NCBI RefSeq assembly: GCF_900156805.1
Contig: NZ_FTOQ01000010.1
Location: 62,001-126,000, forward strand
Length of the DNA: 64,000 nt
Direction: 5' to 3'
Origin: Roseivivax lentus
GTDB taxonomy: Bacteria; Pseudomonadota; Alphaproteobacteria; Rhodobacterales; Rhodobacteraceae
The notes under the pieces: model-generated
What the model was told of the DNA's origin: nothing
Databases searched by the model: none
The model's input: only the letters and a program-made list of their open reading frames with translations
Shown: positions 1,395-27,546 of the stretch, piece after piece
How positions within the stretch are numbered: position 1 is the stretch's first letter
Layout of the letters: each line of letters begins with the position of its first letter
Translations under genes and position numbers: made by a program

Positions 1395-4289
1395 TCAGTT
1401 CGCATCGACATCGGGTGCCAGCACATAGGCGCGCACGGTGCCCGAGGTGGCGTTATCGCGCAGCTGCCAGCGGCGGTTCGGCTGGCTGCTTGTCTCGGGC
1501 CCGACGAAATACCCGTTATAGAGGCCCTCGACGCCGTTCATGCTCCAGGTCAGGTGCGCGCCGCGCCAGCCGAACTGGTAAAGGCCGTAATGCGGCCTCG
1601 GGCGGTCATTATCGCTGATCCCGCCCGGTCCGGAGATGAGGTTCTCCGACGCCGACACGCGGTCCGCATGGCCGAGGAAGATGCCGAAGGCCGATGCGGT
1701 GGTGGCCAGCGGCCGGACCTCGATGACGTTGCCGGTGATGATCGCCCGGATCACCCGGTTGTCGGGCCGCGTGTCGCGCCAGCGCGGCGGCTCGCGGTCG
1801 TTCGACGTCGAGGCCGCGATCCGGATACCGTCCGTGGCGCGGGTGATGGTGTTCCCGGAGACCTGCGCCTCGGTCACCTGCCGCCCGGCCACGACGATGC
1901 CCTGCGCCATGAAGGTTTCCTCGGCAATGGCAAGCCGGTCCATGTCGATCACCCGGCTGGTCTGCGCGCCGATGCGCACGCGCCCGTTATTGCGGATCGC
2001 GGTGCCCAGCACGTTGCGGATGTGCCGCCGCATCTCGCCGGCATCGTCGATATGGTTGGCCTCATTGCGGCGCAGTTCTGCGGCCAGCGTATCGGCGATA
2101 TCGGTGCGCAGATTGGCCGTTATGCTGCGCCCGCGCCGTTCCAGCGCGAAGGCCTCGCGGGTGACGCGGCCCCGGAGTTCGTGAAAGCCGATCCTTTGCG
2201 TGTCGCGCGGTCCGGCGCCGCGCCGTCCCTCGGGAATGACGGTCGCTTGCCCGAGATTGCCGGCCCGGTTGTCCGAGAACCACAGGATGCCCCGCGACAG
2301 CCGCGCCACCAGCACCGGGTCCGCCGTGATCCGCGAAAGGACGCCGCGGCGCCCGACATCGTCCGCCGGGCGCAGATCGTTGTCCTGCACGCGCGCGCGG
2401 GCGGCGTCGATGATGTTGATGCCGATCTGCGACTGGCCAACACGCAGCTTGCAATCGCGCACCAGCACCGAAGGGCGGCCCCGGTCGTTGCGCGTCGCGA
2501 GGCAGGCCGCCGCGCGGTCGCGCCCGTTGCGGCAGCGCAGGCGCAGCCGCTCGAAGCTGGAATCTCCGCAATCGAACGCGCTGACGGCGCCGCGCCGGCC
2601 GTCGCGCTCGCTCGCGGCATCGGTGCCGATCCGGCCGCCGTTGATCGACATGTCGGTGACCCGGACCGTGGTGCAGTCGCGAAAGAGGAAAGCGGCCTCG
2701 CTTCCGGCGACGCTGACGACGGTCTGCGGGCCGGTGCCCTCGACGGTGACGTGACCGAGGCCGGTGAATTCCAGCGTGCCCGGCAGGGCGAACTGGCCCG
2801 CGCGCAGGCAGAGTTTCACATCCCGGCCCGGCGGCAGCCCGGTCACCACGTCGATCAGCTCGGTGACATCGCCGATCACGAAGGTGCACAGCCCTGCCCC
2901 GGTGGTCTGCTGGCAGAGCGCCTCGAGCGCCTCCTGCACCGTCTCCGCGCCGAGGTTGCACATGCTGTCGTCGAACCGCACGTCCTCGGCCTCGAGGCAG
3001 ACGAGCGGCGGGATCAGCGGGCGGATATCGATGATGCCGCCTATGGTGTTGCCCTGCCGGCGGGCCAGCGCGAGGGGCGCGAAATGCCGCCCCCAGCTCA
3101 TCGGCGGCACCGGGTCGTTGGGGTTTTCGCTGGGCATCGGCGTCCAGATGATCGTGCCGGTGGCCGCGCGGGCCTCGAACATCCAGACATCGCCGACCCG
3201 GTATTCGCCGGTGGTGAAGCTTACCGTGACCCCATGCTCCAGCAGCGTCGGCGTGGCGCTGAGCGGGCGGCCGCGGTCGGACAGACCGCCATGGTCCCAG
3301 CGCCGGACGCGCGGGTTGATGAGATCGGCGAAGACCACGGCGGGATTGTCGAAGCTCACGGTGCCGTTCTGCGCCGAGATGTCGATCCGCGACAGCACGC
3401 CCACCGTTCCGAGCGCGCGGTTGCGCTCGTCGAAGACCTCGACCCAGCCGCCATTCACGAAGCCCAGATTGGCATCGTCGCGCGCGCCCCGCAGGACGAG
3501 ATCGCCATCGGTGTTCAGCGCCAGCGCGGCCTCCACATGGCCGTTCTCGCGCGACCAGACGAAGCGGGCGGCGCTGCGCGCCCCGCCCTCGACGATGGCG
3601 ATGCGGTAGAGCTGGTTCTCCTGACTGAGATACCCCGCCTCGGGCGGGATCAGGCAATCGGTCGCGTCGGCCGGATCGGCCGGGTTGGTGCCCGCCGCCA
3701 TGCGCCCGGTGCCGGGTCCCGCCGCGAAGCCGTCGGGCATCATCCCGCAGCGCGCCCGGGCGATCAGCGTCTCGCGTTCGGCATCCGTCAGCGTCACGGC
3801 GCGCACTCCGACGCGCCAGCGGGCCTTGATCCGGGTGCCGGTATCGGCGCCGGACAGGGCCGGATCGTTCAGGAGCACGTCGTCGAAGGCGTTCACATGG
3901 CCTTTCCACGCCTCCAGATAGATCAGCACCTCGTCGCCATTCGCGATGCCGTCGGAAAAGGCCGGCAGCGACAGGTCGCCCGACTGCGTGTCGTAATCGG
4001 TGATGGCCGGGTTCTCGACCTTGAGGCCGTTGACGTAGAAGGCCCCGGCCCCGATCCGGAACCCGCCCGTCCCGCCCGCGGCCGCCGCAATCGTGAAGCC
4101 CGGTCGGTCCTTCGGCGTGCCCGCGGGCCCGATCAGGTCCGCCAGCGCGGTCTCGGCCCGTTCGGTCTGGATCTGGACATTCTCGTTCCAGTCGGAATCG
4201 GTGTATAGGCGGCCCTGCTGGATGAGGACGCCGGTATAGCCCCGCGCGCGCGCATTGGTGCCGCGCCAGCGTGAAAAATCACCGTTCAT
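1395..4289 (-). CDS. eCIS DUF6519 / beta-helix protein, candidate tail-fibre or surface component
   Basis: The protein has 964 residues and is the last gene of the eCIS operon. It starts at the ATG at 4287-4289, behind a strong GGGAGG site. The N-terminus (MNGDFSRWRG, then LIQQGRLYTDSDWNENVQIQ) is the signature of the DUF6519 family found in eCIS clusters. After about residue 480 the sequence becomes a right-handed beta-helix-like region with many short polar repeats of the type GNTITRATDGIRI and DNDLRP, as in NosD-like or fibre proteins. eCIS particles need a baseplate-attached receptor-binding component, and no classical Afp13 fibre gene is present, so this protein is the best candidate. 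The family signature is seen; the adhesin or fibre role is inferred. Confidence 0.75.
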   Translation of the reverse strand: MNGDFSRWRGTNARARGYTGVLIQQGRLYTDSDWNENVQIQTERAETALADLIGPAGTPKDRPGFTIAAAAGGTGGFRIGAGAFYVNGLKVENPAITDYDTQSGDLSLPAFSDGIANGDEVLIYLEAWKGHVNAFDDVLLNDPALSGADTGTRIKARWRVGVRAVTLTDAERETLIARARCGMMPDGFAAGPGTGRMAAGTNPADPADATDCLIPPEAGYLSQENQLYRIAIVEGGARSAARFVWSRENGHVEAALALNTDGDLVLRGARDDANLGFVNGGWVEVFDERNRALGTVGVLSRIDISAQNGTVSFDNPAVVFADLINPRVRRWDHGGLSDRGRPLSATPTLLEHGVTVSFTTGEYRVGDVWMFEARAATGTIIWTPMPSENPNDPVPPMSWGRHFAPLALARRQGNTIGGIIDIRPLIPPLVCLEAEDVRFDDSMCNLGAETVQEALEALCQQTTGAGLCTFVIGDVTELIDVVTGLPPGRDVKLCLRAGQFALPGTLEFTGLGHVTVEGTGPQTVVSVAGSEAAFLFRDCTTVRVTDMSINGGRIGTDAASERDGRRGAVSAFDCGDSSFERLRLRCRNGRDRAAACLATRNDRGRPSVLVRDCKLRVGQSQIGINIIDAARARVQDNDLRPADDVGRRGVLSRITADPVLVARLSRGILWFSDNRAGNLGQATVIPEGRRGAGPRDTQRIGFHELRGRVTREAFALERRGRSITANLRTDIADTLAAELRRNEANHIDDAGEMRRHIRNVLGTAIRNNGRVRIGAQTSRVIDMDRLAIAEETFMAQGIVVAGRQVTEAQVSGNTITRATDGIRIAASTSNDREPPRWRDTRPDNRVIRAIITGNVIEVRPLATTASAFGIFLGHADRVSASENLISGPGGISDNDRPRPHYGLYQFGWRGAHLTWSMNGVEGLYNGYFVGPETSSQPNRRWQLRDNATSGTVRAYVLAPDVDAN

Positions 4290-4323
4290 GTCTTGCCCTC
4301 CCAGTGCAAGGTCGAGTCTGTGG

Positions 4324-6420
4324 CTACGTGCTGCAAAAGAGCCCGGCGGCGTGGCCGAACCGTAGGAAATCGTCGATGCTGCGGCGGATATTGTCCCGGC
4401 GCACGGTATGGGCCGCGCGGTTATAGGCGCCGATCTCGCCACGGTTCTCGGCCCCGCGCAGGATGTGGTCGCCAGTCTGCACGCGCAGCAGCATGTAATC
4501 GGGATCGGCGTAGCGCAGGCTGTCGAAGACCGGCGCCGGCCCCTCGGTGCAGCGATAGAGCCGCGGCGTGACGCTGTCGGGCGGCACATGGGAGAACCGG
4601 ATGCAGCCGACCTGACGGCGCTCGGCGCGGACCGCCGGGACGGTGTCGCTCACGAACAAGGTGTCCGAGGTGGCCAGCCGCGCCTCCGGATCGTCTTCGG
4701 AGACCGCGCCCAACCCGCCGATAGGCCGCCTGTCGCCCTCGCCGAAGGCGTCGGTCTCGACCCGGCCATGGACCGTGCAGCGGTCGAGCCGGATCACCTG
4801 GCGCAACGGCGCCCCGTTGAGGAAGATCGCCCGGTTCTGCGGCCGCATGGCATCGATGATCGTCTCGGCAAAGCAGGCATCCACCTCGGCCTCGAGGCGC
4901 ACCGGGCCGGTAATGACCCGCGCCATGTCGAGGGTGATGCCCACCGCATCGACGAAGAGCGCCGCGGCATTGGGCTGCTCCGGCGCGCCGAGCCGGTTCA
5001 GCCGCCGTCCGGGCACCAGCGTCGTGTCGGCGATGGTGGCGGTCTCTCCGGTGCCGCTGATCCGTACCGGAGCGTTGAAGATGCGCAGCCCGTTCAGCTC
5101 CAGCGTGGCCCCGTCGCCAAGCGCGAAATCGAGCTCCGAGGTCAGCCGCAGCGTCGGGAAATGCTGCGTCGCCGCGACGAGACGCAGGGCGCCGCCCGCG
5201 GGCACCGTGATCGTGCCGCCCGCGGTGTAGATGTCGGTGGCATCGAGCACGAAGAGCCCCTGCCCGCCCGCCGCGTTGATCGCCGTCGAAACCGGCGGGC
5301 CGCCCGGCGCGATCACCGTGCCCGCCGAAAGGTCATCGAGATCGCGGCTGCCATGCTCGCCGCCGCCGATCTCCAGCGGGCGGGCGAAATGACAGGTGAC
5401 GCGCAGGTCGGGATTGGCCGGATCGCCGGTGCGCAGCACAATGCGCCCAAGCTCCGGGTCGATCATGATCCGGTCGTCGCGGGGCGGATGGTTCCACGGC
5501 GGCTCCGCCCCGCCGCCGGGCTCGTCGCCCAGATGCGCCACGCAGATTTGCTCGACCGGCACCTCGGTGCCGTCGAGCATCAGCATCATTGCGCGGTTCT
5601 GGCCGTAGAAGGTGCCCGGCGCCTCGTCCATGATCCAGCGGGCGATTGGGCTCGGCAGGACGTCCTCGGTCACCGGCGTGTCGATCAAAGGCCGGTCATG
5701 GGCGCGGTCGAAGAGCTGCGCGTCGCATCCCAGAGGATGGAAGCGGAACCGCCGGTCGCCCGGCGCCTGCGTGGCGGGATGGCCGGAGATCGAATACGGG
5801 CGCAGCCGCCAGATATGGATGCCGATATTGCCGCGGTTCCACTGGCCGCCCGCGGTCTCGATGCGGCGCACTTCCACATTGCGCGAATTGCGCTCGAACG
5901 CGGTGCCGATCCGGGCCAGCGCCGCGCGGTCGCGCATGTCGACCGAGCCGCCGAAATCGGGATGCAGGAGGCGCATGGACTGGGCGTGCACGAGCCGGTT
6001 CCAGTATTCGGCGGCATAGACCGGCCAGTTCGACGCGGTGCCCGAGGCATGCTCCAGCGCCCGCAGCGTGCCCTTGCGCGCCCGCAGCGCCAGCGCATCG
6101 GCCACCCGGGCGCGCATGTCGATGCCTTCGGGGATGTCCTCCAGCCCCCGCATGCCCAGAAGATCGCCGATATAGGGAATGACCCAGGGCGCGCAGGTCT
6201 CGATGAAGGCGTTGTCGTAAAGATCGTCGAGGCTTTCGTCGACGATCTGCGCCTCGCGGGCGATCAGCGAGGCGAGTGTTCTGAGCGGTCCGAAATCCTC
6301 GATGTCGCGCGCATCGCCGGGCGCGACCCGGCCTTTCACGCGGGCGCCTTCCTCGGCATCGCGGACCCGCAGATAGGCAGGCAGCAGCTGGAACAGATCG
6401 TCGGTGGCGAAACGGGTCAT
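4324..6420 (-). CDS. eCIS tail protein I-like baseplate component (Afp12/gp7 position)
   Basis: The protein has 698 residues. The N-terminal 200 residues (LFQLLPAYLRVRDAE, then DNAFIETCAPWVIPYIGDLLG and RARKGTLRALEH) resemble the phage tail protein I fold that sits at the baseplate wedge tip. The remaining part contains a beta-rich region around residues 390-560 (GGTITVPAGGALRLVAATQHF) that looks like stacked beta-strands. Its ATG overlaps the stop of the second gp6-like gene by four bases (ATGA), so the two are probably translated together. By order it fills the Afp12/gp7 slot that links the gp6-like ring to the outer structures. Large wedge proteins of this kind are poorly conserved, so the slot assignment rests mainly on context. 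Confidence 0.7.
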   Translation of the reverse strand: MTRFATDDLFQLLPAYLRVRDAEEGARVKGRVAPGDARDIEDFGPLRTLASLIAREAQIVDESLDDLYDNAFIETCAPWVIPYIGDLLGMRGLEDIPEGIDMRARVADALALRARKGTLRALEHASGTASNWPVYAAEYWNRLVHAQSMRLLHPDFGGSVDMRDRAALARIGTAFERNSRNVEVRRIETAGGQWNRGNIGIHIWRLRPYSISGHPATQAPGDRRFRFHPLGCDAQLFDRAHDRPLIDTPVTEDVLPSPIARWIMDEAPGTFYGQNRAMMLMLDGTEVPVEQICVAHLGDEPGGGAEPPWNHPPRDDRIMIDPELGRIVLRTGDPANPDLRVTCHFARPLEIGGGEHGSRDLDDLSAGTVIAPGGPPVSTAINAAGGQGLFVLDATDIYTAGGTITVPAGGALRLVAATQHFPTLRLTSELDFALGDGATLELNGLRIFNAPVRISGTGETATIADTTLVPGRRLNRLGAPEQPNAAALFVDAVGITLDMARVITGPVRLEAEVDACFAETIIDAMRPQNRAIFLNGAPLRQVIRLDRCTVHGRVETDAFGEGDRRPIGGLGAVSEDDPEARLATSDTLFVSDTVPAVRAERRQVGCIRFSHVPPDSVTPRLYRCTEGPAPVFDSLRYADPDYMLLRVQTGDHILRGAENRGEIGAYNRAAHTVRRDNIRRSIDDFLRFGHAAGLFCST

Positions 6421-9152
6421 TGTTCGATCTCCAGCTTGAGGGCCGCCTCGCCGAGGGTCAGCAATTCCGCCGGGATCGGCAGGCCGCCCGAGAGATCGGG
6501 CTGCGCCACAGCGGCGACGAGATGCGGCTCATTCGTCTTGCCCAGGCCCAGCCGGTAGAGGAAATCGACATCGACGCCGAGCACGCCCGGCACGGCCTGC
6601 AGCGCGGCCATGGCCTCGGCGCGCGTCACCGGCTGGCCAAGACCGCGGCTGTCGAAGGAGAAGACGTCGAGCGCCTGCGCCCGTGCCGCCGCCTCGACCT
6701 CGTCGGGCACGAAGGCCGCATCGACGTAGAGCCGCGCTTCGAGGCCGAACTCGACCGGCGCGTAATTCTGCACGTAGACACGCTGATCGGCCTCCCCGGC
6801 CTCGGCGAGCGCGGCCTTGAGGTTTTGCATGTCGTCGCCGTTCTCCGCCAGCTCGACGCCGTCCTGTCCGGCGACGGTGACGTAGATCGGGCGATCGAAC
6901 CCGTCGAAGGTCCAGTCCGCCCGGGCCTTGGCCACCGATGCGAAGCCGCGGGCGAAATCCTCGTAATCGCGCAGCGACACGACGCGGCCCAGCGTCAGCA
7001 CCTTCAGGGGCGCGTTCTTCCGCGCGTCCTCCAGAACCTCCGCATCGGCCCCGCCGCCCGGCGGCAGCGGGTTGGTGACGCCCTTCAGCCCGGCGGGCTT
7101 GGCGGCGAGCAGCGTCAGCTGATGGGCCTCCAGATGCCCCGCAAGACCCGCGCCCTTGCGGTAGACCGCCTCCACGTTGTCCTGCCCGGTGGGAAGCCGC
7201 TGACCGCCGCCGAAGATGATCTGCGCGGTACCGTCCTCGGCGTGGCGCACGATGTAGACAGGGTCTTCCGGCCCCGCATCGCGGAAATCATCGACCAGCG
7301 ACCAGAGCACGCGATCGACCCGCACCTCGAGCGCCGGGAGCATGCCGCTCGCGGTCCGGGCCGAGACGTATGTGAGCGGCTTCGACGACAGCGTAAACGC
7401 CTGGAAGGGCCGCGTGGCGTCGCCATCGCCCAGGGTCTCCTGCACGGTTTCGCCATGGGTCGCGAAGGCGACATTCGCGCAGATCGTCACGCTGGCGCGG
7501 ACATAGCGGTTCGCGAAGGGCGTGGTGAAGGTCAGGATCGAATGGCCCTTGTCGAGCGTGTTCTCGGCGATCTCCAGCACTTCCGAGGCGACCACGCCGG
7601 CGAGTTCCTCGAGCTCGCCGGTGACGATCACCGTCTTGCCGGGCAGCAGCAGCAGCTCCGACGTGCCGAGTTCGACCTGGAACGTGGTGAGCGCGCCGTC
7701 GGCAGCGCCGACCGGCGCCGTGATCGGCAGGTCCGACAGGGTCAGCGCCTCGGGCATGGCAAAGACCGTGGCGGTCCGCGTCTGGAACGTCTCGAGGCTG
7801 ACCGAGGCGCCGTCCGGCCCGGTGCCACTCAGCGCCACCTCCAGCCGCGTCACCTTGGCCGACATCGAATAGCCCTCGACGCTTTGCGTTTCGGCGGCGT
7901 GAACGCTCACCCAAGCCTCGTGGGTCGCGTCGCGGATCAGGATGGTCTGCCCCGGCGTGATCTCGGTGAACTCGCGTTCGAGGTAAATGAAGCCGCGCCC
8001 CGACGAGGGCGTTCCTTCCTCGTCGATATCCCCTGCCGTGGACAGGATGTCGCTCGGCTGTTGCGTCGTGTAGCTGCCCGCCGACAGGGACGGCCCCGCA
8101 AAGATTACCGCGCCCGTCCCGGAGAGGCCCGCCGTCGTGTCGCTTTCCACCGGCGAGGTTCGCCGGGTGATCGCGATATTCCCGAAAAAGCCCGCCTGCA
8201 CCCGCATCGCATGGGGCAGGATCGGGTCCGGCGGCACGAAGACCAGCGAACTGATCGCGAGGTTGAGCGTGAAGAGTCCGATATTGTTCAGCGCCGTCGT
8301 CGTGCTGAGCGCCGAGGCCGTCCAGCTTCCGCCCGAGACCGCCGCCCCAAGATTGGCGGAATTGAGCGCCTGGTTCGCATCCCAGGCAGGAAAGACCAGC
8401 AGCGAGGCGATATAGACGTAAGGCGGGGGATTGGTCGGATCGGCCTTCAGCGCCACGATCCGCCGGCCGTCCAGCCCGGCGCTGCGATCGCTGACACGCC
8501 GCAGGAAGCCCTCGCCCTCGCCGAAGGCCACGGGCATGTTCCCGCGCATGAGCAGGATCGGATCGCCCGCATTGACCCGCGCGACATCGGCGGTCAGCGA
8601 CAGGGTCTCGCTGTCCGCGTCGAGCACCTGCGGATAGGCAAGGCGCGGCGTCAGGGCGTTCCACTCCGCCCGCGCGGTCAGCGGCTCAACCGTCTCGAAG
8701 ATCTGCGGCGTCTCGCCATCCCGCGGCACCGAGCGCACGCGCAGGCCGGGCGCGTATTCCAGCGTCTCGTCGGGCGCATCCCCGGGCTCCGCCTCGAAGG
8801 CCAGATGCACGCCCGCGGCCTTCGCCGGCGCCAGCTGGTAGCCGATCAGGTCGGCATGGGCGCGCACGCTCTCGCGCTCGGTCGCCGTCCTGAGATAGGC
8901 CTCGTTGGCGTCGCGCTCGGCATAGAAGGCGAGCGTGTGGCAGACCCCAGCCCAGGCATCGAACAGGCCCAGCGTGTAATCCCCCTCGGTCCGCGTGCGC
9001 AGGTCCGACAGGCCCGGACGGTGCGCATCGGCAAGCCGGCGCAGCATCGAGGCATAGAATTGCGAATGCGTCCCGACCCGCGTGCGGATCTCGTCGAGGC
9101 CGGGGCGGTTCTCGACGGGTTGCGGCGTCCGGATTTTCAGTGAGCGTGTCAT
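6417..9152 (-). CDS. eCIS putative baseplate assembly protein, second gp6/J-like wedge protein
   Basis: The protein has 911 residues. The N-terminal region (RPGLDEIRTRVGTHSQFYAS, then YTLGLFDAWAGVCHTLAFYA and ERDANEAYLRTATERESV) is typical of the large eCIS 'putative baseplate assembly protein' family. The C-terminal region contains the Baseplate_J-like segment (VTNPLPPGGGADAEVLEDAR, then PLKVLTLGRVVSLRDYEDFA and FASVAKARADW). It lies directly after another J-like protein and overlaps it by four bases. Two consecutive gp6-like genes are common in compact eCIS clusters and are thought to form the wedge ring around the hub. The family is clear; stoichiometry and exact position in the baseplate are inferred. 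Confidence 0.82.
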   Translation of the reverse strand: MTRSLKIRTPQPVENRPGLDEIRTRVGTHSQFYASMLRRLADAHRPGLSDLRTRTEGDYTLGLFDAWAGVCHTLAFYAERDANEAYLRTATERESVRAHADLIGYQLAPAKAAGVHLAFEAEPGDAPDETLEYAPGLRVRSVPRDGETPQIFETVEPLTARAEWNALTPRLAYPQVLDADSETLSLTADVARVNAGDPILLMRGNMPVAFGEGEGFLRRVSDRSAGLDGRRIVALKADPTNPPPYVYIASLLVFPAWDANQALNSANLGAAVSGGSWTASALSTTTALNNIGLFTLNLAISSLVFVPPDPILPHAMRVQAGFFGNIAITRRTSPVESDTTAGLSGTGAVIFAGPSLSAGSYTTQQPSDILSTAGDIDEEGTPSSGRGFIYLEREFTEITPGQTILIRDATHEAWVSVHAAETQSVEGYSMSAKVTRLEVALSGTGPDGASVSLETFQTRTATVFAMPEALTLSDLPITAPVGAADGALTTFQVELGTSELLLLPGKTVIVTGELEELAGVVASEVLEIAENTLDKGHSILTFTTPFANRYVRASVTICANVAFATHGETVQETLGDGDATRPFQAFTLSSKPLTYVSARTASGMLPALEVRVDRVLWSLVDDFRDAGPEDPVYIVRHAEDGTAQIIFGGGQRLPTGQDNVEAVYRKGAGLAGHLEAHQLTLLAAKPAGLKGVTNPLPPGGGADAEVLEDARKNAPLKVLTLGRVVSLRDYEDFARGFASVAKARADWTFDGFDRPIYVTVAGQDGVELAENGDDMQNLKAALAEAGEADQRVYVQNYAPVEFGLEARLYVDAAFVPDEVEAAARAQALDVFSFDSRGLGQPVTRAEAMAALQAVPGVLGVDVDFLYRLGLGKTNEPHLVAAVAQPDLSGGLPIPAELLTLGEAALKLEIEQ

Positions 9153-20219: not shown

Positions 20220-20464
20220 GTCCAGAGCCTCCCGAACAGCGCCGCGGCCAGCGCCTGGCCGATGCCTTCGGGCGTCTTGCCCTCGGCGGGCAGGCTGCCG
20301 AGGTCGATCGCGCCGATATCCTCCGCCGCGACGCCCTCAGGCAATCCGTAGCGGTTCAGAAGCTCGCTCAGCCGGGCCTCGAACGCCTCCGCCGCGCGCC
20401 GGCCCTCGTCCAGCGTGAACCCATTCAGCGCAAGGCCGTCGATATGCACGACGCTCTCGGTCAT
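20216..20464 (-). CDS. Small eCIS operon protein of unknown function
   Basis: This 82-residue acidic protein (MTESVVHIDGLALNGFTLDE, with a helical middle EAFEARLSELLNRYGLPEG) overlaps both neighbours by four bases: its start shares ATGA with the stop of the ATPase gene, and its stop overlaps the start of the DUF4157 gene. The composition is natural and the double overlap argues it is a real gene. It has no signal peptide, membrane segment or known motif. Position suggests an assembly factor or a chaperone for the DUF4157 protein, but nothing in the sequence proves it. Confidence 0.7.
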   Translation of the reverse strand: MTESVVHIDGLALNGFTLDEGRRAAEAFEARLSELLNRYGLPEGVAAEDIGAIDLGSLPAEGKTPEGIGQALAAALFGRLWT

Positions 20465-22284
20465 CCGAAGCCCCGCAATTCGCTTTCCGACAGGGTCTTG
20501 CCGATCTTGCCGTATTCCTGCCGCGCCGCGCGCTTCAGATGCGCCATGGTGACCGGGCCGCCCGCCTCGGCGGCAAGGAACGCGGCTGTGAGCGCGATGG
20601 AGCGGATGAAGCCGCCCGAGATCGCCAGCCGCGCGAGCGCCGGATAATCGAGGTCCTCACGCGGCACGGCATCGGGAAAAACCGTCTGCCAGATCCGCGC
20701 ACGATGCACGGCGTCGGGAAAGGGGAAATCCACCACCGCCCGGAAGCGGCGCAGGAAGGCGTCGTCCACCGTGCCCTTGAGGTTGGTGGTGACGATGGCG
20801 ACGCCGGTGAAGGCCTCGAGCCGCTGCAGCAGATGCGCGGTTTCCGAGTTCGAATGCCGGTCGAGACTGTCCTTCACGTCGCTGCTGCGCTTGGAAAACA
20901 GCGCCTCGCCCTCGTCGAAGATAAGGATCGCGCCCGAATCCTCCGCCGCATCGAAGATCCGCGAGATGTTCTTCTCGGTCTCGCCGATATATTTGGAGAT
21001 CATCGACGACAGGTCGACGCGGTAGAGCCCGAGCGCACCGCGCGCCCCGCCCAGATCGCGCGCGAGGATCTCGGCGGCCATGGTCTTGCCGGTCCCGCTG
21101 GCCCCGGAAAACAGCGCCGAAAGGCCGAGCCCCCGGCTCGACTTGCCGCGGAACCCCCAATCATCCAGCACCGTGTCGCGATGCACCCGGTAGGCTGCCA
21201 GCTGGTGCAGCTGCCGCATCTGGCCCTCCGGCAGGATCAGATCGTCCCATGTGGCCTGCGGCTGGATGCGTTCCGCGAGCCCCTCGAGCGCGCGTTCCGC
21301 GCGGCTGCGCGCCAGTGTCCAGATGTCGGGCGCAAAGGCCATCCCGTGCGTCGCCTCGATATCCGCGCGGTCGACGGGCGACAGCCGGAAGGGCTCGTCG
21401 GCGGGCCGTGCTATCGGCGCGGGCCGGAAGGCGGCGACCGGGCGATGGGTTCGCGGCGGCGCGCTGCCCCACAGGAAAAGCGGCGCGCTGGTCCGGTCGG
21501 CGATCAGCCCGCCCTCGGGCGTCGCGGGCAGCAGGACCGCGCCCTCGAGCAGCACCAGATCCCGGTTCAGCCGCTCCGCGGCCTCCGCGGGACCAAGACC
21601 CGCGGGCAGAAGCGCGGGGTCGAGCGCATAGCAATGCAGGCCCAGCATCGCCGCCGCATCCGCCGCAAGCCCGCGTGCCTCGACCGGATCGTCGGTCTGG
21701 ATGCAAAGGATCGGCCGCTGCGCCCAATCGCGCGCCTTGGGCACGGCACGGGCCAGCGTCGCGGCGTCCTGCCGCCCCTCCGGAGACAGGAGCGACATCG
21801 CGGGACGCAAGGCCGCGTCGGGCTCCCCCCCGCCCCAGAGATAGGCCGTCACCGCGTCGGGCAGAACGAGCGCGCGCTGCGCAAAGCCAGAGCCCGGCTC
21901 CAGCGCGATCAGGCTGGCGCCGCGCAACCGCCCGGTGGAGAAAAGCTCGGGCGCTACTTCAGGCCCGAGCACCATCTGGACCAGCGCGGGCGTCGCCCGG
22001 CCCTTCTGCGACAGCGGATGGCCTGCAAGCGCCGTCGCGGCCTCGGGGCCAAGCTCGGGTGCGGCCACCAGCGCGAAGATATCGACCTGCCGCTCGCTCA
22101 ACCCGAACCGCTCGATCAGCGCCGCAAGCGCCACGGGCCCCAGCGCGCCGAGGCCCGCCAAAGCGCCCCGGAGCGCAGGCGCCGTCCCCTGCCCGGCCCC
22201 GAGCAGCGCCAGACAATGCCCGGCCAGCGCCTGCAGCGCGCGGGCCTGGATGGCCGCCGCCGATATCGCCTCGTGCCGGGTCAC
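20461..22284 (-). CDS. eCIS AAA+ ATPase (Afp15-like)
   Basis: The protein has 607 residues. I place the start at the GTG at 22282-22284, which overlaps the stop of the cap gene (GTGA), although the frame is open further upstream. The C-terminal 230 residues form a complete AAA+ module: Walker A GASGTGKT at about 394-401, Walker B ILIFDEGEALF at about 453-463, and a second region of homology with TTNLKGTVDDAFLRRF including a candidate arginine finger. The N-terminal 300 residues are a less conserved helical domain. Afp15/Pvc15 ATPases are needed for assembly or cargo loading of the particle, not for firing. Enzyme class is secure; the exact step is inferred. Confidence 0.9.
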   Translation of the reverse strand: MTRHEAISAAAIQARALQALAGHCLALLGAGQGTAPALRGALAGLGALGPVALAALIERFGLSERQVDIFALVAAPELGPEAATALAGHPLSQKGRATPALVQMVLGPEVAPELFSTGRLRGASLIALEPGSGFAQRALVLPDAVTAYLWGGGEPDAALRPAMSLLSPEGRQDAATLARAVPKARDWAQRPILCIQTDDPVEARGLAADAAAMLGLHCYALDPALLPAGLGPAEAAERLNRDLVLLEGAVLLPATPEGGLIADRTSAPLFLWGSAPPRTHRPVAAFRPAPIARPADEPFRLSPVDRADIEATHGMAFAPDIWTLARSRAERALEGLAERIQPQATWDDLILPEGQMRQLHQLAAYRVHRDTVLDDWGFRGKSSRGLGLSALFSGASGTGKTMAAEILARDLGGARGALGLYRVDLSSMISKYIGETEKNISRIFDAAEDSGAILIFDEGEALFSKRSSDVKDSLDRHSNSETAHLLQRLEAFTGVAIVTTNLKGTVDDAFLRRFRAVVDFPFPDAVHRARIWQTVFPDAVPREDLDYPALARLAISGGFIRSIALTAAFLAAEAGGPVTMAHLKRAARQEYGKIGKTLSESELRGFG

Positions 22285-23594
22285 GGGCCCAGATCGACGA
22301 CGGGCGAGTCGAAACCCGAAGGCCCGAGACCAAGCTGGCTGGCCGCGCCGTCGATCTCGACCCGTATGAGGTATACCGCAGCCGGAACCCCGGCGAGGTC
22401 GGCAACCACCTGCGTTCCGGTCGCCGCCACCCGGCGGCAGCGGACCGAAAACGCGGGCTCCGGCGCGCCGGGCACAGGATTGAACAGCAGCGCCGCGACC
22501 TGATCGGTCAGAACCGGATGCGCGAGATCGACGGTCACCGTGCCGGTGAAGGTGCCGTTCGTCACGCTGCCCGATGGCGTTGCCGTGGTCATCACGGGGG
22601 CAATCGGGAAGGCCAGCGCGTTCGACATCTCCCAGACCCGGATATCGCCGTTTCCGGGATCGAAAAGATGCTCCACGCTGAGTGCCGCGAAGCCCGCGGG
22701 CACGTCGGCGGGCAGCGCCACGTCGATGCGCGTGTTGCGCAGATCGGCCGCCGCGACCGCCAGTTCGCGCAGGCCCAGCATCACCCGCATGTTCTCGGAA
22801 ACGAGCGCGGTGCCTTCCATCGCCACGACGCCGCCCGCGAGGATCGGGGCCACCGGGTCCGGCAGGCTGCCCGCCCCGCCCGGCAGCGCGCGGATCCGCG
22901 TCACCCGCGGCGCGCGCAGCGGCGCCACGCGGCCCCCTATGCTCAGGACCGGCAGGGAGGATCGGACCGGCGTGCGGTTTTCGATCAGCACGCAATTCAC
23001 CTGGTAGAAGGCCGATGCGCGCAGGGCGGAGGAAAAGCTCGACCAGATGTTGCTCAGCACTTCCACGCGCCGCTGCGGATCGGGGTCGAGACTGGCCGGC
23101 GTGATCCGGATCTGCTCGAACTGGTCGGCCAGATCGGTGGCCGCGAGGAACCGGCGCGCGGGCGGCAGGATGTCGGCATCGACCGGCGCCGTGCCGCCCA
23201 GGGCCTCCCGGATCGCCTCGCGCGTGAGAACCGGCGTCTCGTGCAGAAGCTGCATACCGTATCCGAGCAGGATTTCCGAACTCAGCTCGTCCGCGCCGGT
23301 GGCGGTCAGCACGTAATGCAGATCGAGCGCGAGAAACGGCCCGTCGATCCGCGCGCCATCGGCGCTGCGCGCGGGCAGCCGTTCGTTGGACCAGGCCGGA
23401 TTGCGCGTGGCGTTCCACATGTAGATGTTGAGCCGGTTGATCTGATCCGCATCGTCTTCGGGTTCCAGCGCGTCGACCGGGCGCGAGGACACGGTGAATT
23501 GCCCGATCTGATCGACATTGTTGTTGATCAGCCCCTCGTTGAGGAGGTCTCTGAGAACGGCGGTGACGCCGGCGATGGCGAGGGCGTTGGCCAT
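22281..23594 (-). CDS. eCIS tube/sheath terminator (cap) protein with DUF4255 domain (Afp16-like)
   Basis: The protein has 437 residues. The N-terminal 190 residues are a DUF4255 (Pvc16 N-terminal) domain: VTAVLRDLLNEGL, then LNIYMWNATRNPAW, LDLHYVLTATG, and SSEILLGYGMQLLHETPVL. In Afp and PVC, this protein caps the distal end of tube and sheath and fixes the length. The C-terminal half is beta-rich (VVADLAGVPAAVYLIRVEID) and looks like one or two Ig-like domains, an extension not present in the shortest cap proteins. The start overlaps the stop of the proline-rich gene by one base. Family is secure; the function of the extension is unknown. Confidence 0.88.
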   Translation of the reverse strand: MANALAIAGVTAVLRDLLNEGLINNNVDQIGQFTVSSRPVDALEPEDDADQINRLNIYMWNATRNPAWSNERLPARSADGARIDGPFLALDLHYVLTATGADELSSEILLGYGMQLLHETPVLTREAIREALGGTAPVDADILPPARRFLAATDLADQFEQIRITPASLDPDPQRRVEVLSNIWSSFSSALRASAFYQVNCVLIENRTPVRSSLPVLSIGGRVAPLRAPRVTRIRALPGGAGSLPDPVAPILAGGVVAMEGTALVSENMRVMLGLRELAVAAADLRNTRIDVALPADVPAGFAALSVEHLFDPGNGDIRVWEMSNALAFPIAPVMTTATPSGSVTNGTFTGTVTVDLAHPVLTDQVAALLFNPVPGAPEPAFSVRCRRVAATGTQVVADLAGVPAAVYLIRVEIDGAASQLGLGPSGFDSPVVDLGP

Positions 23595-24370
23595 CAGCGT
23601 TTCTTCCAGCCAAGGTAATCGGTCAGCCCGCCGGACCGGGGCGCGGCGCGGGCCACGGGCGCGCGGGCCGGTGCGGCGGGGGCCGGCGGCGGTGGTGCGG
23701 GCCGTTCGGGCGGCGGCGCGGTCACCTCGACCTTGCCGATCCGCACGCTGACCGTTGGTTTCTGTGGCGCGGGCATGGCATCCGCCCGGTCGTTCGGGCC
23801 GTCCACGGCCCTGCGCGCCTCGATCATCGGGGGTGCGGGTGGTGGCCCGTCTGGTGCAGGCACGGACCGGGTTTCAATGACGTGGCGCTCGGTCTCGTGG
23901 ATGGTCACGCGCTCAGAGGGACGCGCGGCCTCGGGGCCATGGTCCGTCCGGTCGATGTGCCGTTCGACCTCCGGCGGCGCCGGAGGTTCGGGCGGCGTCG
24001 CGCGTCGGGTCTCGGCCTGTTCCGACGGTGGTGCGGGTTCTTGGGGACGGGCCGGCGCCTCAGAACTCCGAAAGGGCCCTGACACCGGTCGGTCCACGTC
24101 CGCCCCCCGTGCCCGCCCAGGCTCAGTGGGATCCACCGGCCCCGTAGCCCGCGACCGCGCCTCCGGCCGGACGGGATCGCCCCCCGCGCTGCGGCTCTGA
24201 CGGGTGGAGGGCGCGGGCGGTGCCGGTGGCTCCGCGCGCCGCTCGGCGGATTCCTCGCGCAGACCCTCGTCGCCGGGCGCCTCCTCGAACCGGCCCTGGG
24301 CCCGGGGCAGGATCGCCGGGCGCGTCGTCGCCGAAAACCGGTCGGCGATGCGATCGAAAAGCCCGCTCAT
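23594..24370 (-). CDS. Proline-rich eCIS operon protein, function unknown
   Basis: The protein has 258 residues, from the ATG at 24368-24370 that shares ATGA with the stop of the upstream gene. The frame is also open further upstream, but that part is a shadow of the previous gene. The N-terminus (MSGLFDRIADRFSATTRPA) and C-terminus (SGGLTDYLGWKKR) look ordered and may be binding motifs. Nearly everything between is low complexity, dominated by Pro, Ala, Arg and Glu, with several PPAPP-like runs. It is probably a disordered linker or scaffold used in assembly. I do not recognise a family. Confidence 0.72.
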   Translation of the reverse strand: MSGLFDRIADRFSATTRPAILPRAQGRFEEAPGDEGLREESAERRAEPPAPPAPSTRQSRSAGGDPVRPEARSRATGPVDPTEPGRARGADVDRPVSGPFRSSEAPARPQEPAPPSEQAETRRATPPEPPAPPEVERHIDRTDHGPEAARPSERVTIHETERHVIETRSVPAPDGPPPAPPMIEARRAVDGPNDRADAMPAPQKPTVSVRIGKVEVTAPPPERPAPPPPAPAAPARAPVARAAPRSGGLTDYLGWKKR

Positions 24371-25023
24371 CGCTCCAGCGCCTCGAGATAGAGGCCCCGG
24401 CGCAGCGCGGACATCGCGAGGATGTCCGCCTCGCGCCAGCCATAGCCCCGCGCGAGTGCGACGACATCCGCCACGACGCGCCGCGCCGCCGCCTCGAACT
24501 CGCCCCAGACGAAGGCCAGGGCATCGAAGGCGGGCGTGGCCTGGGCGCCGCAAGCCTCGCAGCGGAACCCCAGCGTCATGGCAAGCGCCGGATCGGCCTC
24601 CTCGATGCGGGCCTCCGCCGCCGCCCGGAAGGCCGGATCGTCCCAGGGCGCCTCCGGTGCCAGCGCCACGAGGTCGAGCCCCGCGCGCGTCACGTGGCGC
24701 AGGGTCGGAAGACGCACCGCGATGTCGCGCCCGGCATGGGTCACGGTCACCTCCGAGACCGCGCGCCGCTCAGGCAGGCCGAATGCGCGCGGGATCTCGA
24801 ATTCCAGCCGGGTGCCGCAGCCGGGACAGGTCGTCGTGGCCTCCGCCGCAGTGTCGAGAAGCGTTCCGCGCAGCGCCCAGACCGCCCGGTCGAGATCGCC
24901 GATCGGCGCCTCCTCGGCCCGGTCCCCGAGGGCGGCCTTGCCCAGCAGGCGGGCCCGCTCCAGGGGACCGCCATCCTTGCCACGCTCGTAGAGCCGCAGC
25001 AGGTCTTCGCTGCCGAAGGCCAC
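24367..25023 (-). CDS. eCIS hub assembly chaperone-like protein with a split zinc ribbon
   Basis: The protein has 218 residues and sits directly after the tube gene, the usual place of the T4-like baseplate hub assembly chaperone family in eCIS operons. It carries two CxxC pairs: CPGC at residues 66-69 and CEAC at 155-158, which together could bind one zinc ion. The C-terminal helix (EADILAMSALRRGLYLEALE) resembles the end of gp26-like proteins. The gene starts four bases after the tube stop and shares ATGA with the proline-rich gene. The Cys pairs and context are seen; chaperone function and zinc binding are inferred. Confidence 0.7.
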   Translation of the reverse strand: MAFGSEDLLRLYERGKDGGPLERARLLGKAALGDRAEEAPIGDLDRAVWALRGTLLDTAAEATTTCPGCGTRLEFEIPRAFGLPERRAVSEVTVTHAGRDIAVRLPTLRHVTRAGLDLVALAPEAPWDDPAFRAAAEARIEEADPALAMTLGFRCEACGAQATPAFDALAFVWGEFEAAARRVVADVVALARGYGWREADILAMSALRRGLYLEALER

Positions 25024-25027
25024 GGCC

Positions 25028-25555
25028 CTACACGGCAGGTTCGAGGAAGGAAATCTCGGCAGGCTCGACCGCGTCGTAATCCCGTTCCCAGCCCTCGTTC
25101 TCGATCTTGATCATCTGGATCGCCACCGCGTTGGCATTCGCGTCCAGCTCCGGCATGGCCTGGTATTCCGACACCCAGCAGCGGAAGATGCGATAGCTGA
25201 GCGCCAGCTGCCCGGCCTCGTTGTAGAGGTCGAGCACGAGGTCCTTGCGGAAATCCTGCAGGCTGACCTCGGCGCCGAGGGCCGAGCCGTAATTCCAGAC
25301 CTTGTTCGCCCATTGCTCGAACTCGACGTCATGGGTCACGCCGCGTTCCAGCGTGATGCCCTCGAACATCGTGCGGCCCGGGCTTTTGCGCGGGGTCGAG
25401 GCGTCGCCCCCCTCGCGATGCTCGACGATCTCGGTCGTGCGCTTCAGCGGGCTGACCTTGGAGATGCCGGCCACGTAGCGGTTGTCCCATTTCACTCGGA
25501 ACTTGAAGTTCTTGTAGGGATCGAAACGGTTCGCGTTGACGGTGAATTGTGCCAT
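25028..25555 (-). CDS. eCIS inner tube protein (gp19-like)
   Basis: The protein has 175 residues, from the ATG at 25553-25555, 17 bases after the sheath stop; a longer upstream frame overlaps the sheath gene and is not used. The sequence (MAQFTVNANRFDPYKNFKFR, then WDNRYVAGISKVSPLKRTTE, FEGITLERGVTHDVEFEQWA and YRIFRCWVSEYQAMPELDAN) matches the tail tube family (gp19, Afp1/Afp5). Tube subunits form hexameric rings inside the sheath and carry cargo. Only one tube gene is present, unlike AFP and PVC, which have two. Family is secure. Confidence 0.94.
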   Translation of the reverse strand: MAQFTVNANRFDPYKNFKFRVKWDNRYVAGISKVSPLKRTTEIVEHREGGDASTPRKSPGRTMFEGITLERGVTHDVEFEQWANKVWNYGSALGAEVSLQDFRKDLVLDLYNEAGQLALSYRIFRCWVSEYQAMPELDANANAVAIQMIKIENEGWERDYDAVEPAEISFLEPAV

Positions 25556-25572
25556 GGTTTCGGCCCCTTGAT

Positions 25573-27546
25573 TCAGTTGGACTGCATGAGCTGCTGGAAC
25601 TTCAGCACGACGAATTCCGCCGGACGCACCGGGGCGAAACCCACATAGATGTTCAGGATGCCGAGGTTGATGTCGGCCTGCGTCGTCGTCTCGCTGTCGC
25701 ATTTGACGAGATAGGCATCGCGCGCCGAGGCCCCCTGGAACGCGCCCTGCCGGTGCAGTTGCGACATGAAGGCGTTCACGTTCAGCCGCACGTTGGACCA
25801 CAGCGGCTCGTCATTGGGCTCGAAGACGACCCATTGCAGCCCGCGGAACAGCGAATGCTCTATGAACAGCGCCAGCCGCCGGACCGGGATGTAGCGCCAT
25901 TCCGAGGCCAGCGCGTCCGCGCCATCGAGCGTGCGCGCCCCCCAGATCACCGAATTGTAGACCGGGAAGGTCCGGATTGCGTTGATGCCCTGCTGGTTCA
26001 GCGGGCCCTGCTGGCGGTTGGTCATCACATCGACGGGCGTGCCCCCCGCGATCCCCGCCGCGGTGCCCGCAGGCGCCTTCCAGACGCCGCGCGCCGCATC
26101 GGTCCGGGCATAGAGCCCGGCGGCGATGCCGCTTGTGGGCATCACCCGGGGCGTGGCGGGGTTGGCCACATCCGGCCCCGTCACCTTGGGATAATAGAGC
26201 GCCGCGTTGCGCCGCACGGTGCCGCCCAGCTGCCCTGTCCAGGCGAGGATGTTGGTGCGGTCCGTGCCCTCGGGCACATCGACGATCAGGAAGGCGAAGT
26301 TCCGCGTGCAATAGGCATGGGCCGCCTGGTAGACCTGCGCCGCGTTCGCCATCCGGGTGTGATCGAGCGCCGAGAGATCCGGCAGGCACATCAGGTTGAA
26401 GACGTCCGGCACGATGGCATCGAGGGCGAAGATCCCCTCGCCCGCGGCCTCGTCGCCGCCGATCGCGTCGATCACCGCGTCGCGCCAGGCGTCGGTATTG
26501 CCGGGCAGCGTGCCGTCATTGCCGCCGCCGAGCTGCGCCAGATCGTCCGCCGGCGCTTCGAGCAGCGCGTTGAAATCCGCCGCCGCACCCGCACCGGTGA
26601 CGACCGTGCGCTCGGGCAAGGTGCCGTCCTGGTGCTGCACGGTGATCATCTCGCTTTCGGCGGCCACCACCGTCTCGACGTATCGCGCATCGCCCGCATT
26701 GATGGTCACGCCGAGATGCGCCTCCTCGCGGATCACCTCGGTGCCCTCGAATTCCCGCACCACCAGATCGAAGCTCGTGGCCCCGGCCCCGGCATGGGCG
26801 ATGCCCACGCGCAGCGTGTCGCCCCACGACCCGACGGAGGACGCCGCGACCGTCAGGGATGCCGCAGCGGCACCTTCGGTGTCGATCTCCACCGAGGCGG
26901 CGGCGATGCCTCCGCCCGCCAGCGCCAGCAATTCGCCCGGCGTGGCGGCCTCGATCTCGGCCTGGTTCGTGGCGGGCGACCCGCCCACATCGAACCGCGC
27001 CGGCAGCGACCCGTCCGCATGCTGGACGCGCACCAGCGTGCTGCCCGCATTGACGATGGTTTCCACATGCTGCGCATTGGCCGCATCGGTCGAGAGGTTG
27101 TCGAAAAACTCCTCGGTCGCGACCGTGGTGCCATCGGCCTCGAATGCGCGGACCAGCATCTGGAACGTGTCGGTCGCGGCGTCGGCATGGGCGATGCCCA
27201 CGGCGATCCGGTTTCCGTCCGCGCCCGGGGCCACCGCCGTCACGGTCATCGCGACGCCGTTTGTGTCCACATCGGCCGCCGCAATGCCTCCCGCCGCGAC
27301 CCGGACGATGAACGCGACATTGCCGCCATTGAGGAAGTAATGGCGCACCGCGTAGGACGCTTCGGAGCCCGCGAACACGCCACCGAAGATGCGCTCGAAC
27401 TCGCCGAAGGAGGTGACGCGCGTGGCTTCGTTCAGCGGCCCTCGGGCAAAGACGCCGACGAAGGCGGTATTCGAGGTCGCGACCCCGGATATCGACCGGA
27501 CACCGGACGGAATTTCACGGACATAGACGCCTGGGGTATCGAACAT
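25573..27546 (-). CDS. eCIS contractile sheath protein with a duplicated inserted domain
   Basis: The protein has 657 residues. The N-terminus (MFDTPGVYVREIPSGVRSIS) and the C-terminal 300 residues (NVRLNVNAFMSQLHRQGAF, with QADINLGILNIYVGFAPVRP AEFV at the end) are classic tail sheath. This single gene provides all sheath subunits. Between them, residues 86-342 hold two related copies of a domain of about 126-130 residues (shared elements GGIAAA, VGIAHA, VETIV/VETVV, and VQHADGSLP/VQHQDGTLP), likely displayed on the outer surface. The ATG at 27544-27546 has an AGAGGT ribosome binding site that lies in a potential stem. As first gene of the operon it sets expression of the whole particle. Family is secure; surface exposure of the insert is inferred. 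Confidence 0.94.
   Translation of the reverse strand: MFDTPGVYVREIPSGVRSISGVATSNTAFVGVFARGPLNEATRVTSFGEFERIFGGVFAGSEASYAVRHYFLNGGNVAFIVRVAAGGIAAADVDTNGVAMTVTAVAPGADGNRIAVGIAHADAATDTFQMLVRAFEADGTTVATEEFFDNLSTDAANAQHVETIVNAGSTLVRVQHADGSLPARFDVGGSPATNQAEIEAATPGELLALAGGGIAAASVEIDTEGAAAASLTVAASSVGSWGDTLRVGIAHAGAGATSFDLVVREFEGTEVIREEAHLGVTINAGDARYVETVVAAESEMITVQHQDGTLPERTVVTGAGAAADFNALLEAPADDLAQLGGGNDGTLPGNTDAWRDAVIDAIGGDEAAGEGIFALDAIVPDVFNLMCLPDLSALDHTRMANAAQVYQAAHAYCTRNFAFLIVDVPEGTDRTNILAWTGQLGGTVRRNAALYYPKVTGPDVANPATPRVMPTSGIAAGLYARTDAARGVWKAPAGTAAGIAGGTPVDVMTNRQQGPLNQQGINAIRTFPVYNSVIWGARTLDGADALASEWRYIPVRRLALFIEHSLFRGLQWVVFEPNDEPLWSNVRLNVNAFMSQLHRQGAFQGASARDAYLVKCDSETTTQADINLGILNIYVGFAPVRPAEFVVLKFQQLMQSN
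26521..27291 (-). repeat. Tandem domain duplication inside the sheath gene
   Basis: Residues 86-211 and 212-342 of the sheath protein are diverged copies of one domain. Shared landmarks in the same order are GGIAAA, VGIAHA, VR-FE, VET-V and VQH-DG-LP. Identity is moderate by eye, so the duplication is old. The flanking sequence on both sides is ordinary sheath. Confidence 0.75.

What the first reader, a model, noticed from the sequence alone, without database searches (positions are those of the whole stretch)
1395..27546. Complete 18-gene extracellular contractile injection system in one operon
Sheath, tube, cap, AAA+ ATPase, hub, spike, PAAR-like tip, gp25, two J-like wedges and a tail protein I-like protein are all present on one strand, with gaps or overlaps of a few bases. 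There is no capsid, terminase, lysis or T6SS membrane-complex gene. There is one sheath and one tube gene, while AFP and PVC have several. This compact form resembles the subtype II eCIS known from actinobacteria and others. Its target and cargo in a Rhodobacterales-like host are open questions.
Basis: partly seen in the sequence, partly recalled or inferred. Interest (0 to 1): 0.75.

Follow-up and report, generated by a model that had tools for sequence, protein, structure and literature searches.

The report
Phage-tail-like injection system with tape-measure-like cargo
A Rhodobacteraceae-type bacterium carries a complete set of genes for a phage-tail-like syringe of a known kind, with one giant protein that probably both sets the syringe's length and carries a business end that matches none of the family libraries searched.

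Summary
Confirmed: 18 minus-strand genes (1395-27546), junctions from 4-base overlaps to a 34-base gap, encode a contractile injection system; none of 29 scanned flanking ORFs is a capsid or terminase gene. It is a known kind. Gene order matches a Streptomyces plasmid cluster, and two Rhodobacteraceae-family genomes carry co-linear clusters (17 of 18 genes detected in each). Among solved structures the sheath is nearest to Streptomyces CIS. The last gene is DUF6519, a published fibre anchor (eBAP5).

The finding did not name the most informative gene. The 1724-aa protein at 15045-20219 carries eCIS_core (HELTH), an acidic stretch, a helical trunk with hydrophobic segments, and a variable C-terminus, like Tme, the tape-measure-related effector of Streptomyces davawensis. 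Its trunk is 49% identical over 803 positions to a Chloroflexus protein that ends in an EndA-type nuclease instead. The genome has no match to the Afp14-type tape measure, so this protein may be ruler and cargo at once. The cargo region matches no Pfam, NCBIfam or PADLOC family; I saw it in four genomes. The sheath has a duplicated domain, single in the two relatives compared.

The parts
25573..27546 (-). gene 1, sheath (657 aa)
   Evidence: Phage_sheath_1 45.8 bits and Phage_sheath_1C 40.3 bits; best solved match Streptomyces CIS sheath 8bky, 3.5e-70
26971..27309 (-). sheath domain repeat, copy A (residues 80-192)
   Evidence: local alignment score 214 against copy B, highest of 200 shuffles 65; single copy in L043 and L070, L069 not compared
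26584..26931 (-). sheath domain repeat, copy B (residues 206-321)
   Evidence: as copy A
25028..25555 (-). gene 2, inner tube (175 aa)
   Evidence: Phage_T4_gp19 2e-42; best segments 64-94% identical in the fetched eCIS loci where found
24367..25023 (-). gene 3, cysteine-rich protein, role unknown (218 aa)
   Evidence: weak zinc-ribbon match below cut-off; matched in many fetched eCIS loci
23594..24370 (-). gene 4, Pro-rich protein (258 aa), weakest gene call
   Evidence: open frame; no family; same slot in NBC_00299
   Evidence: Pvc16_N 2.5e-35
20461..22284 (-). gene 6, AAA+ ATPase (607 aa)
   Evidence: AAA 2.4e-20; alignment with relatives
20216..20464 (-). gene 7, small conserved protein (82 aa), candidate loading factor
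   Evidence: scores 93 and 105 against the Chloroflexus proteins in the same slot, shuffle maxima 58 and 43; NBC_00299 protein in the same slot not similar
15045..20219 (-). gene 8, giant tape-measure-like effector (1724 aa)
   Evidence: eCIS_core 1.7e-13; one HExxH at residue 119; relatives
19830..20033 (-). eCIS_core domain of gene 8 (residues 63-130)
   Evidence: Pfam PF13699
16947..19343 (-). trunk of gene 8 (residues 293-1091), hydrophobic segments within 960-1052
   Evidence: 49% identity over 803 positions to Chloroflexus islandicus; hydropathy
16800..16946 (-). junction of gene 8 (residues 1092-1140) with GGGESHTL
   Evidence: motif G-x(1-4)-H-x-[LI] in 18 of 26 trunk carriers after exact duplicates were removed, shuffle mean 1.4, max 5
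15045..16082 (-). cargo region of gene 8 (residues 1380-1724)
   Evidence: no match in Pfam, NCBIfam, PADLOC, plasmids or phages; shared HEW, VRT.T and LQ.H motifs in four relatives
14393..15043 (-). gene 9, CIS_tube family, possible tube initiator (216 aa)
   Evidence: CIS_tube 2.5e-09
14031..14378 (-). gene 10, tail protein X/LysM-like (115 aa)
   Evidence: Phage_tail_X 22.5 bits, cut-off 22; phrog_7145 baseplate wedge
12882..14024 (-). gene 11, hub by position (380 aa)
   Evidence: no Pfam match; 78% and 70% identical in L043 and L042, 33-39% in four plasmid-borne eCIS
12388..12885 (-). gene 12, spike OB-fold protein (165 aa)
   Evidence: Phage_base_V 2.4e-22
12059..12388 (-). gene 13, PAAR-like tip (109 aa)
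   Evidence: DUF4280 21.0 bits, below cut-off 26.3; syntenic
11681..12040 (-). gene 14, gp25 (119 aa)
   Evidence: GPW_gp25 8.4e-16
9149..11677 (-). gene 15, baseplate J-like 1 (842 aa)
   Evidence: Baseplate_J 2.4e-07; TIGR02243 6.7e-67
6417..9152 (-). gene 16, baseplate J-like 2 (911 aa)
   Evidence: TIGR02243 1.5e-60, over cut-off
4324..6420 (-). gene 17, Tail_P2_I-like fibre adaptor (698 aa)
   Evidence: Tail_P2_I 0.0035, below cut-off
1395..4289 (-). gene 18, DUF6519 (eBAP5) tail fibre (964 aa)
   Evidence: DUF6519 7.9e-27; Beta_helix only at E 0.015, below cut-off, in the C-terminal part; 54% and 49% identical along nearly the full length in G001 and G125

Best explanation
The operon builds a phage-tail-like contractile particle of the kind with a Tail_P2_I adaptor and a DUF6519 fibre. 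Its cargo is the giant gene-8 protein. Shown by sequence: the set of sheath, tube, cap, ATPase, baseplate, spike and fibre genes; a gene-8 protein made of eCIS_core, acidic stretch, helical trunk and variable C-terminus; and no match to the Afp14-type tape measure in the genome. Inferred: gene 8 binds the spike complex through its eCIS_core end; its trunk lies inside the tube and sets its length, with the AAA+ ATPase and the 82-aa protein helping to load it. The fibre then binds a target surface, the sheath contracts, the trunk's hydrophobic helices enter the target membrane, and the C-terminal domain (an unknown activity, probably enzymatic) acts there. Release from the producer must use something outside the cluster. 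Extracellular action is favoured (about 0.6) because of the fibre gene.
For: Family matches for the structural genes. Same gene order in Streptomyces sp. NBC_00299: 18 of 18 by position, of which 14 also match by tblastn, genes 8 and 18 share a domain, and genes 4 and 7 match by position only. Co-linear clusters in G001 and G125 with 17 of 18 genes detected in each. CIS_TMP not found in this genome but found in 5 of 24 genomes or records searched the same way. Gene 8 is the largest ORF and lies just upstream of the baseplate genes, as Tme does in PMC11126660 (sections 6, 9, 10, 12 read). The trunk is conserved across phyla while the end is swapped: 49% identity over 803 positions with Chloroflexus, whose C-terminus is Endonuclea_NS_2; identity 60-83% for residues 650-1091 against 33-38% for residues 1451-1724 among three close relatives. 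The fibre is conserved and DUF6519 is a fibre marker in PMC12923769 (passages).
Against: No experiment and no structure model. Pfam's lambda tape-measure model reached only E = 4 on the trunk, so the tape-measure tie rests on position, size, helix-like composition and Tme, not on a family match. The protein in the same slot in NBC_00299 shares the eCIS_core domain and a short post-trunk stretch (E 0.008) but not the trunk, and no gene-8 match at all was found in the three rhizobial megaplasmid clusters, so the trunk is not universal in this gene order. The sheath is nearest to Streptomyces CIS, which PMC10066040 reports as cytoplasmic, and no lysis gene was seen in the cluster.
Confidence: 0.75

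Rival explanations
1. It is a cytoplasmic CIS: particles stay in the producer and act on the producer's own membrane under stress, as proposed for Streptomyces and for the Chloroflexota/Deinococcota lineage.
For: The two best solved sheath matches are the Streptomyces cytoplasmic CIS (PMC10066040 passages). Chloroflexota and Deinococcota CIS of lineage IId lie free in the cytoplasm (PMC12998442, section 23 and passages). No lysis family was matched among the 18 genes, and no separate gene sits between effector and baseplate genes that could be an immunity gene.
Against: A full-length DUF6519 fibre gene is present and conserved in two relatives. PMC10066040 says the Streptomyces clusters lack a conventional fibre.
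Confidence: 0.3
2. It is a decayed prophage tail or a tailocin that kills by puncture alone, and gene 8 is only its tape measure.
For: All structural parts descend from phage tails; phage sheath families match.
Against: All 18 frames are open; Pvc16_N cap, AAA+ ATPase and eCIS_core are eCIS markers (PMC8213781 passages). No TerL; sheath closer to CIS than to phages. Gene 8 carries a variable end beyond the trunk, replaced by a nuclease domain in some relatives.
Confidence: 0.04
3. Gene 8 is an effector but not the ruler; length is set by another protein such as gene 3 or gene 4, or is not fixed.
For: In S. lividans a tape-measure-like effector pair can be deleted without apparent structural defects (PMC13277306, section 5). 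The Streptomyces clusters of PMC10066040 also lack a typical Afp14 tape measure (passage).
Against: Gene 8 is long, helix-like in composition and in the tape-measure slot; the helical part of its trunk is the best conserved part.
Confidence: 0.35

Closest known systems
Streptomyces davawensis CIS with Tme (PMC11126660)
   Same: DUF4157 (eCIS_core) giant as largest ORF immediately upstream of the baseplate genes; hydrophobic helices; C-terminal cargo. That group's sheath clade is reported in Proteobacteria, Chloroflexota and Actinobacteria.
   Different: Tme is 2247 aa with an EndA-type endonuclease end; here the end matches no family. The S. davawensis sequences were not among the loci I obtained, so identity was not measured.
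Streptomyces sp. NBC_00299 plasmid cluster (NZ_CP108040.1)
   Same: Same 18-gene order by position, including an 82-aa gene and the DUF6519 fibre; with L048 the nearest outside group in the tree, SH-aLRT 89.
   Different: Its eCIS_core protein is 1164 aa and shares little beyond that domain with gene 8.
Chloroflexus CIS (L117, L118)
   Same: Sheath, tube, cap, ATPase, 82-aa-type gene and the gene-8 trunk in the same order.
   Different: C-terminus is Endonuclea_NS_2; not in the window's clade.
eBAP5 group of eCIS (PMC12923769)
   Same: DUF6519 N-terminal fibre domain after a Tail_P2_I gene; faint beta-helix hint in the C-terminal part.
   Different: The paper ties eBAP5 mainly to Actinobacteriota and says such systems largely lack Afp12 homologues; here two J-like proteins are present, and whether the second is an Afp12 homologue was not tested.
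Afp and PVC (subtype Ia)
   Same: Same core parts.
   Different: One sheath gene here where Afp and PVC have three solved sheath chains each; no Afp14-type tape measure found; effector in-line rather than at the 3' end (recalled for Afp/PVC).

Membership tests
eCIS | core set: sheath, tube, Pvc16-type cap, AAA+ ATPase, gp25, J, spike, PAAR-like tip close together | tested here: met
   PAAR-like tip only by DUF4280 below cut-off and position
eCIS | eCIS_core (DUF4157) in the cluster | tested here: met
   PF13699 51 bits, cut-off 22; one match in the genome
eCIS | no capsid or terminase beside it | tested here: met
   TerL_nuclease 0 in the genome, controls 3 of 14; none among 29 flanking ORFs scanned of 60 called. 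Capsid families were not searched genome-wide.
eCIS | assembled particle released and acting on other cells | not testable with these tools
   needs microscopy
Tme-bearing CIS group | relatively long ORF with N-terminal DUF4157 and conserved place in the cluster (as defined in PMC11126660) | tested here: met
Tme-bearing CIS group | sheath in the S. davawensis clade | not tested
   that sheath was not among the loci I obtained
Tme-bearing CIS group | EndA-type C-terminal nuclease | tested here: not met
   no Pfam match up to E = 10; hhalign to EndA-type ends probability 0.1% with shallow alignments. The published group definition does not require this end.
eBAP5 (DUF6519) eCIS | DUF6519 fibre following Tail_P2_I | tested here: met
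   DUF6519 94.5 bits, cut-off 22.4; Tail_P2_I 17.7 bits, below its cut-off 20.6
eCIS subtype II / IId | place in the dbeCIS tree | tested here: inconclusive
   nearest solved sheaths are Streptomyces CIS, lineage IId by PMC12998442; no dbeCIS reference tree available
Afp/PVC (Ia) | several sheath paralogues and Afp14-type tape measure | tested here: not met
   one sheath match in the genome; CIS_TMP not found, with working control
T6SS | TssJLM membrane complex and ClpV | tested here: not met
   none among the 18 genes by Pfam; rest of the genome not searched for them

The most novel reading that the evidence does not exclude
Gene 8 is one of a cross-phylum series of self-measuring cartridges: a conserved trunk that sets tube length, a fixed GxxHxL junction, and interchangeable ends. 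Here the end is a new effector family that enters target cells from an extracellular particle made by a Rhodobacteraceae-type bacterium.
Probability: 0.35. Interest if true: 0.6.

Novelty: new member of a known kind. Interest (0 to 1): 0.42.

Why it matters
Of 1130 predicted eCIS effectors with DUF4157, 983 had no other annotated domain (PMC11297309, passage), and the targets of most systems are unknown. This cluster gives a compact, intact case in which ruler and cargo may be one protein, with close relatives that share trunk and fibre but differ more in the end, and a Chloroflexus relative with the same trunk and a nuclease end. That makes a direct test possible of whether the effector's length sets the particle's length.

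Tried and rejected
Prophage or tailocin: rejected. Clean insertion site: in the 8 other same-genus genomes the flanking TetR gene has only weak matches (8 of 8) and the gene at 28028-28912 only weak matches (3 of 8), so no empty site could be drawn. Ruler check against published Roseiflexus particle length (217 nm, PMC12998442 passage): dropped, because the genomes in that order are unnamed and I could not tell which is Roseiflexus; 17 of 82 genomes there match the trunk. Relatives of the cargo: none in plasmids or phages; 28 pattern matches in viral contigs, none confirmed; 1 of 385 class genomes, its own (query residues 1090-1724); 4 of 295 family genomes: its own, G001, G125, and G018, a weak 64-residue match (E 2.2e-4) in a stretch whose listed ORFs look unrelated. 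I treated G018 as chance without resolving it; my notebook's word 'antisense' for it is not established. Structure of the cargo: 18 attempts met a full queue, so no model and no fold search. 82-aa protein as immunity protein: disfavoured, because a similar protein sits in the same slot in Chloroflexus with a different effector end, though the NBC_00299 protein in that slot is not measurably similar (score 30, shuffle maximum 51).

Rows dropped: the tree used 83 rows of 100 candidates (99 loci plus window): 16 loci lacked one of three genes and L042 was left out as a duplicate of L070. The junction count used 26 of 38 trunk rows (37 plus window), leaving out exact duplicates and fragments; 8 of those 26 lack the motif, and several of the 26 are close relatives. 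PHROGs were run on 10 of the 18 genes. Of the 40 other family genomes with eCIS_core I fetched a locus from 20.
Full report
Observation. Eighteen open frames lie on the minus strand from 27546 down to 1395. Junctions run from 4-base overlaps to a 34-base gap. Pfam and NCBIfam identify sheath, tube, Pvc16-type cap, AAA+ ATPase, eCIS_core, CIS_tube, tail protein X, spike OB protein, gp25, two J-like proteins and DUF6519 above their cut-offs, and DUF4280 and Tail_P2_I below them. The hub is named by position only; it matches no family. My codon-based caller recovered 17 of the 18, missing the Pro-rich gene 4.

Surroundings. Upstream of the sheath are a polyketide-cyclase-like gene, an MmyB-like regulator, then nar, nnrS and other cellular genes; on the other side is a TetR regulator. 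Of 33 genes called in the window flanks 21 were scanned; one, 53065-54363, has no family and one is DUF2478. Beyond the window, 8 scanned ORFs of 27 called are enzymes, transporters and sensor kinases. The genome has one Phage_sheath_1 match, one eCIS_core match, no CIS_TMP match and no TerL_nuclease match.

Distribution. Of 9 same-genus genomes only this one has a strong match to the ATPase; the others show 29-33% matches of the generic AAA kind. eCIS_core occurs in 41 of 295 family genomes, this one included. I fetched one locus from each of 20 of the other 40; two of them (G001 and G125) hold this cluster type, and four more hold other eCIS with the same core genes. The G001 and G125 clusters are co-linear, and 17 of the 18 genes are found in each by tblastn, all but the Pro-rich gene 4. 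The tube is therefore common in eCIS of many phyla. In a tree of sheath, tube and ATPase (83 rows, quick search, SH-aLRT only) the window joins L043, L069 and L070 at 100, and this group joins L048 and the Streptomyces plasmid L066 at 89, the latter two on a long branch; the tree mixes phyla, which fits frequent horizontal transfer. FastTree gave the same sister with 0.88.

Kind of system. Gene order equals that of the Streptomyces sp. NBC_00299 plasmid, 18 of 18 by position; 14 genes also match by tblastn, two more share a domain, and genes 4 and 7 rest on position. Co-linear clusters sit on Rhizobium, Ensifer and Ciceribacter megaplasmids, where I detected 15 of the 18 genes in each of the three loci tested (L065, L067, L068); genes 4, 7 and 8 were not detected there. 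Among solved structures the sheath is nearest to 8bky and 8bl4 (240 and 231 bits), then 9ezm (222 bits, source not identified), Pvc2 (162) and Afp3 (151); PMC10066040 gives 8BKY and 8BL4 as its Streptomyces CIS models (passages read). Hub and cap had no PDB match by sequence. DUF6519 is called eBAP5, a fibre anchor, in PMC12923769 (passages read). So the machine is a known kind.

The cargo. Gene 8 has eCIS_core at residues 63-130 with HELTH at 119, an acidic stretch, a trunk at 293-1091 with three hydrophobic segments between 960 and 1052, a short junction, and a C-terminal region. With Chloroflexus islandicus the trunk shares 390 of 803 aligned positions, while residues 1451-1724 share 1-5% with the two Chloroflexus proteins in full-length alignments and the Chloroflexus end is Endonuclea_NS_2 at 2.7e-10. 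In a scan of ten ends, Endonuclea_NS_2 was over cut-off in L045 and L118, below cut-off in L050 and L122, and absent in L051, L052, L053, L054, L069 and L070. Directly after the trunk, G-x(1-4)-H-x-[LI] occurs in 18 of 26 carriers against a shuffle mean of 1.4 and maximum of 5; the motif was chosen after seeing the sequences and several carriers are close kin, so this is descriptive. Among three close relatives identity is 60-83% in residues 650-1091 and 33-38% in residues 1451-1724, whereas the fibre keeps 49-54% along its length in two of them. The cargo region conserves HEW, VRT.T and LQ.H motifs in four proteins and matches nothing in Pfam, NCBIfam, PADLOC, phages or plasmids; the PDB search up to E = 1 gave only one match, at 0.51.

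Comparison with Tme. PMC11126660 (sections 6, 9, 10, 12 read) describes BN159_7576 of S. davawensis: DUF4157 at the N-terminus, largest ORF, just upstream of baseplate genes, hydrophobic helices, remote homology to phage tape measures, an EndA-type end that cuts DNA, and co-elution with tagged tip together with spike and tube-initiator proteins; its group spans several phyla. Gene 8 meets the stated group definition but not the nuclease end. I could not compare the sequences themselves. PMC13277306 (abstract, section 5) shows a split version in S. lividans. PMC8213781 (passages) notes DUF4157 proteins with linkers occasionally over 1000 aa before toxin domains, which the trunk here probably is. 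From PMC10598620, PMC8651086 and PMC11297309 I saw passages only.

Mechanism. Shown: gene content, order, module conservation, no CIS_TMP match. Inferred: loading by the ATPase and the 82-aa protein, ruler role, fibre-triggered contraction, membrane insertion, cargo activity. The 82-aa protein is measurably similar to the Chloroflexus proteins in the same slot (scores 93 and 105, shuffle maxima 58 and 43) but not to the NBC_00299 one. Whether the particle acts outside or inside the producer is open.

A local feature. The sheath carries a tandem copy of a domain of about 115 residues (score 214, shuffle maximum 65); L043 and L070 have one copy, and L069 was not resolved in that script. It may enlarge the outer face of the sheath (inference).

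Print check. Searches for Tme-type effector wording returned five papers; DUF4157 with Rhodobacteraceae returned none; a search with Roseovarius and Rhodobacter terms listed, by title, no paper on such a system in its first 15 of 416. Only the open-licence PMC library was searched.

Noticed in passing
window 26584-27309: Tandem duplication of a domain of about 115 residues in the sheath, single in L043 and L070.
   Followed up: partly
window 16800-16946 and the same place in 17 other trunk carriers: A G-x(1-4)-H-x-[LI] motif, often followed by a hydrophobic strand and AS.P or RSTP-like letters, soon after the effector trunk; looks like a fixed junction before interchangeable ends.
   Followed up: partly
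window 20216-20464; L117, L118, L043, L069, L070: A small gene between ATPase and giant effector, kept in Chloroflexus as well as in the close relatives.
   Followed up: partly
G001 contig C12 around 112340: G001 carries CIS_TMP on another contig than the present cluster, suggesting a second eCIS of another type in the same genome.
   Followed up: no
window about 32878-45702: nar and nnrS region at about 77-81% DNA identity to plasmid-borne nar clusters of Fuscovulum, Pontibrevibacter and Thioclava.
   Followed up: no
L171 / L183 (G746): A trunk-bearing gene in the Chloroflexus order is interrupted by a stop codon.
   Followed up: no
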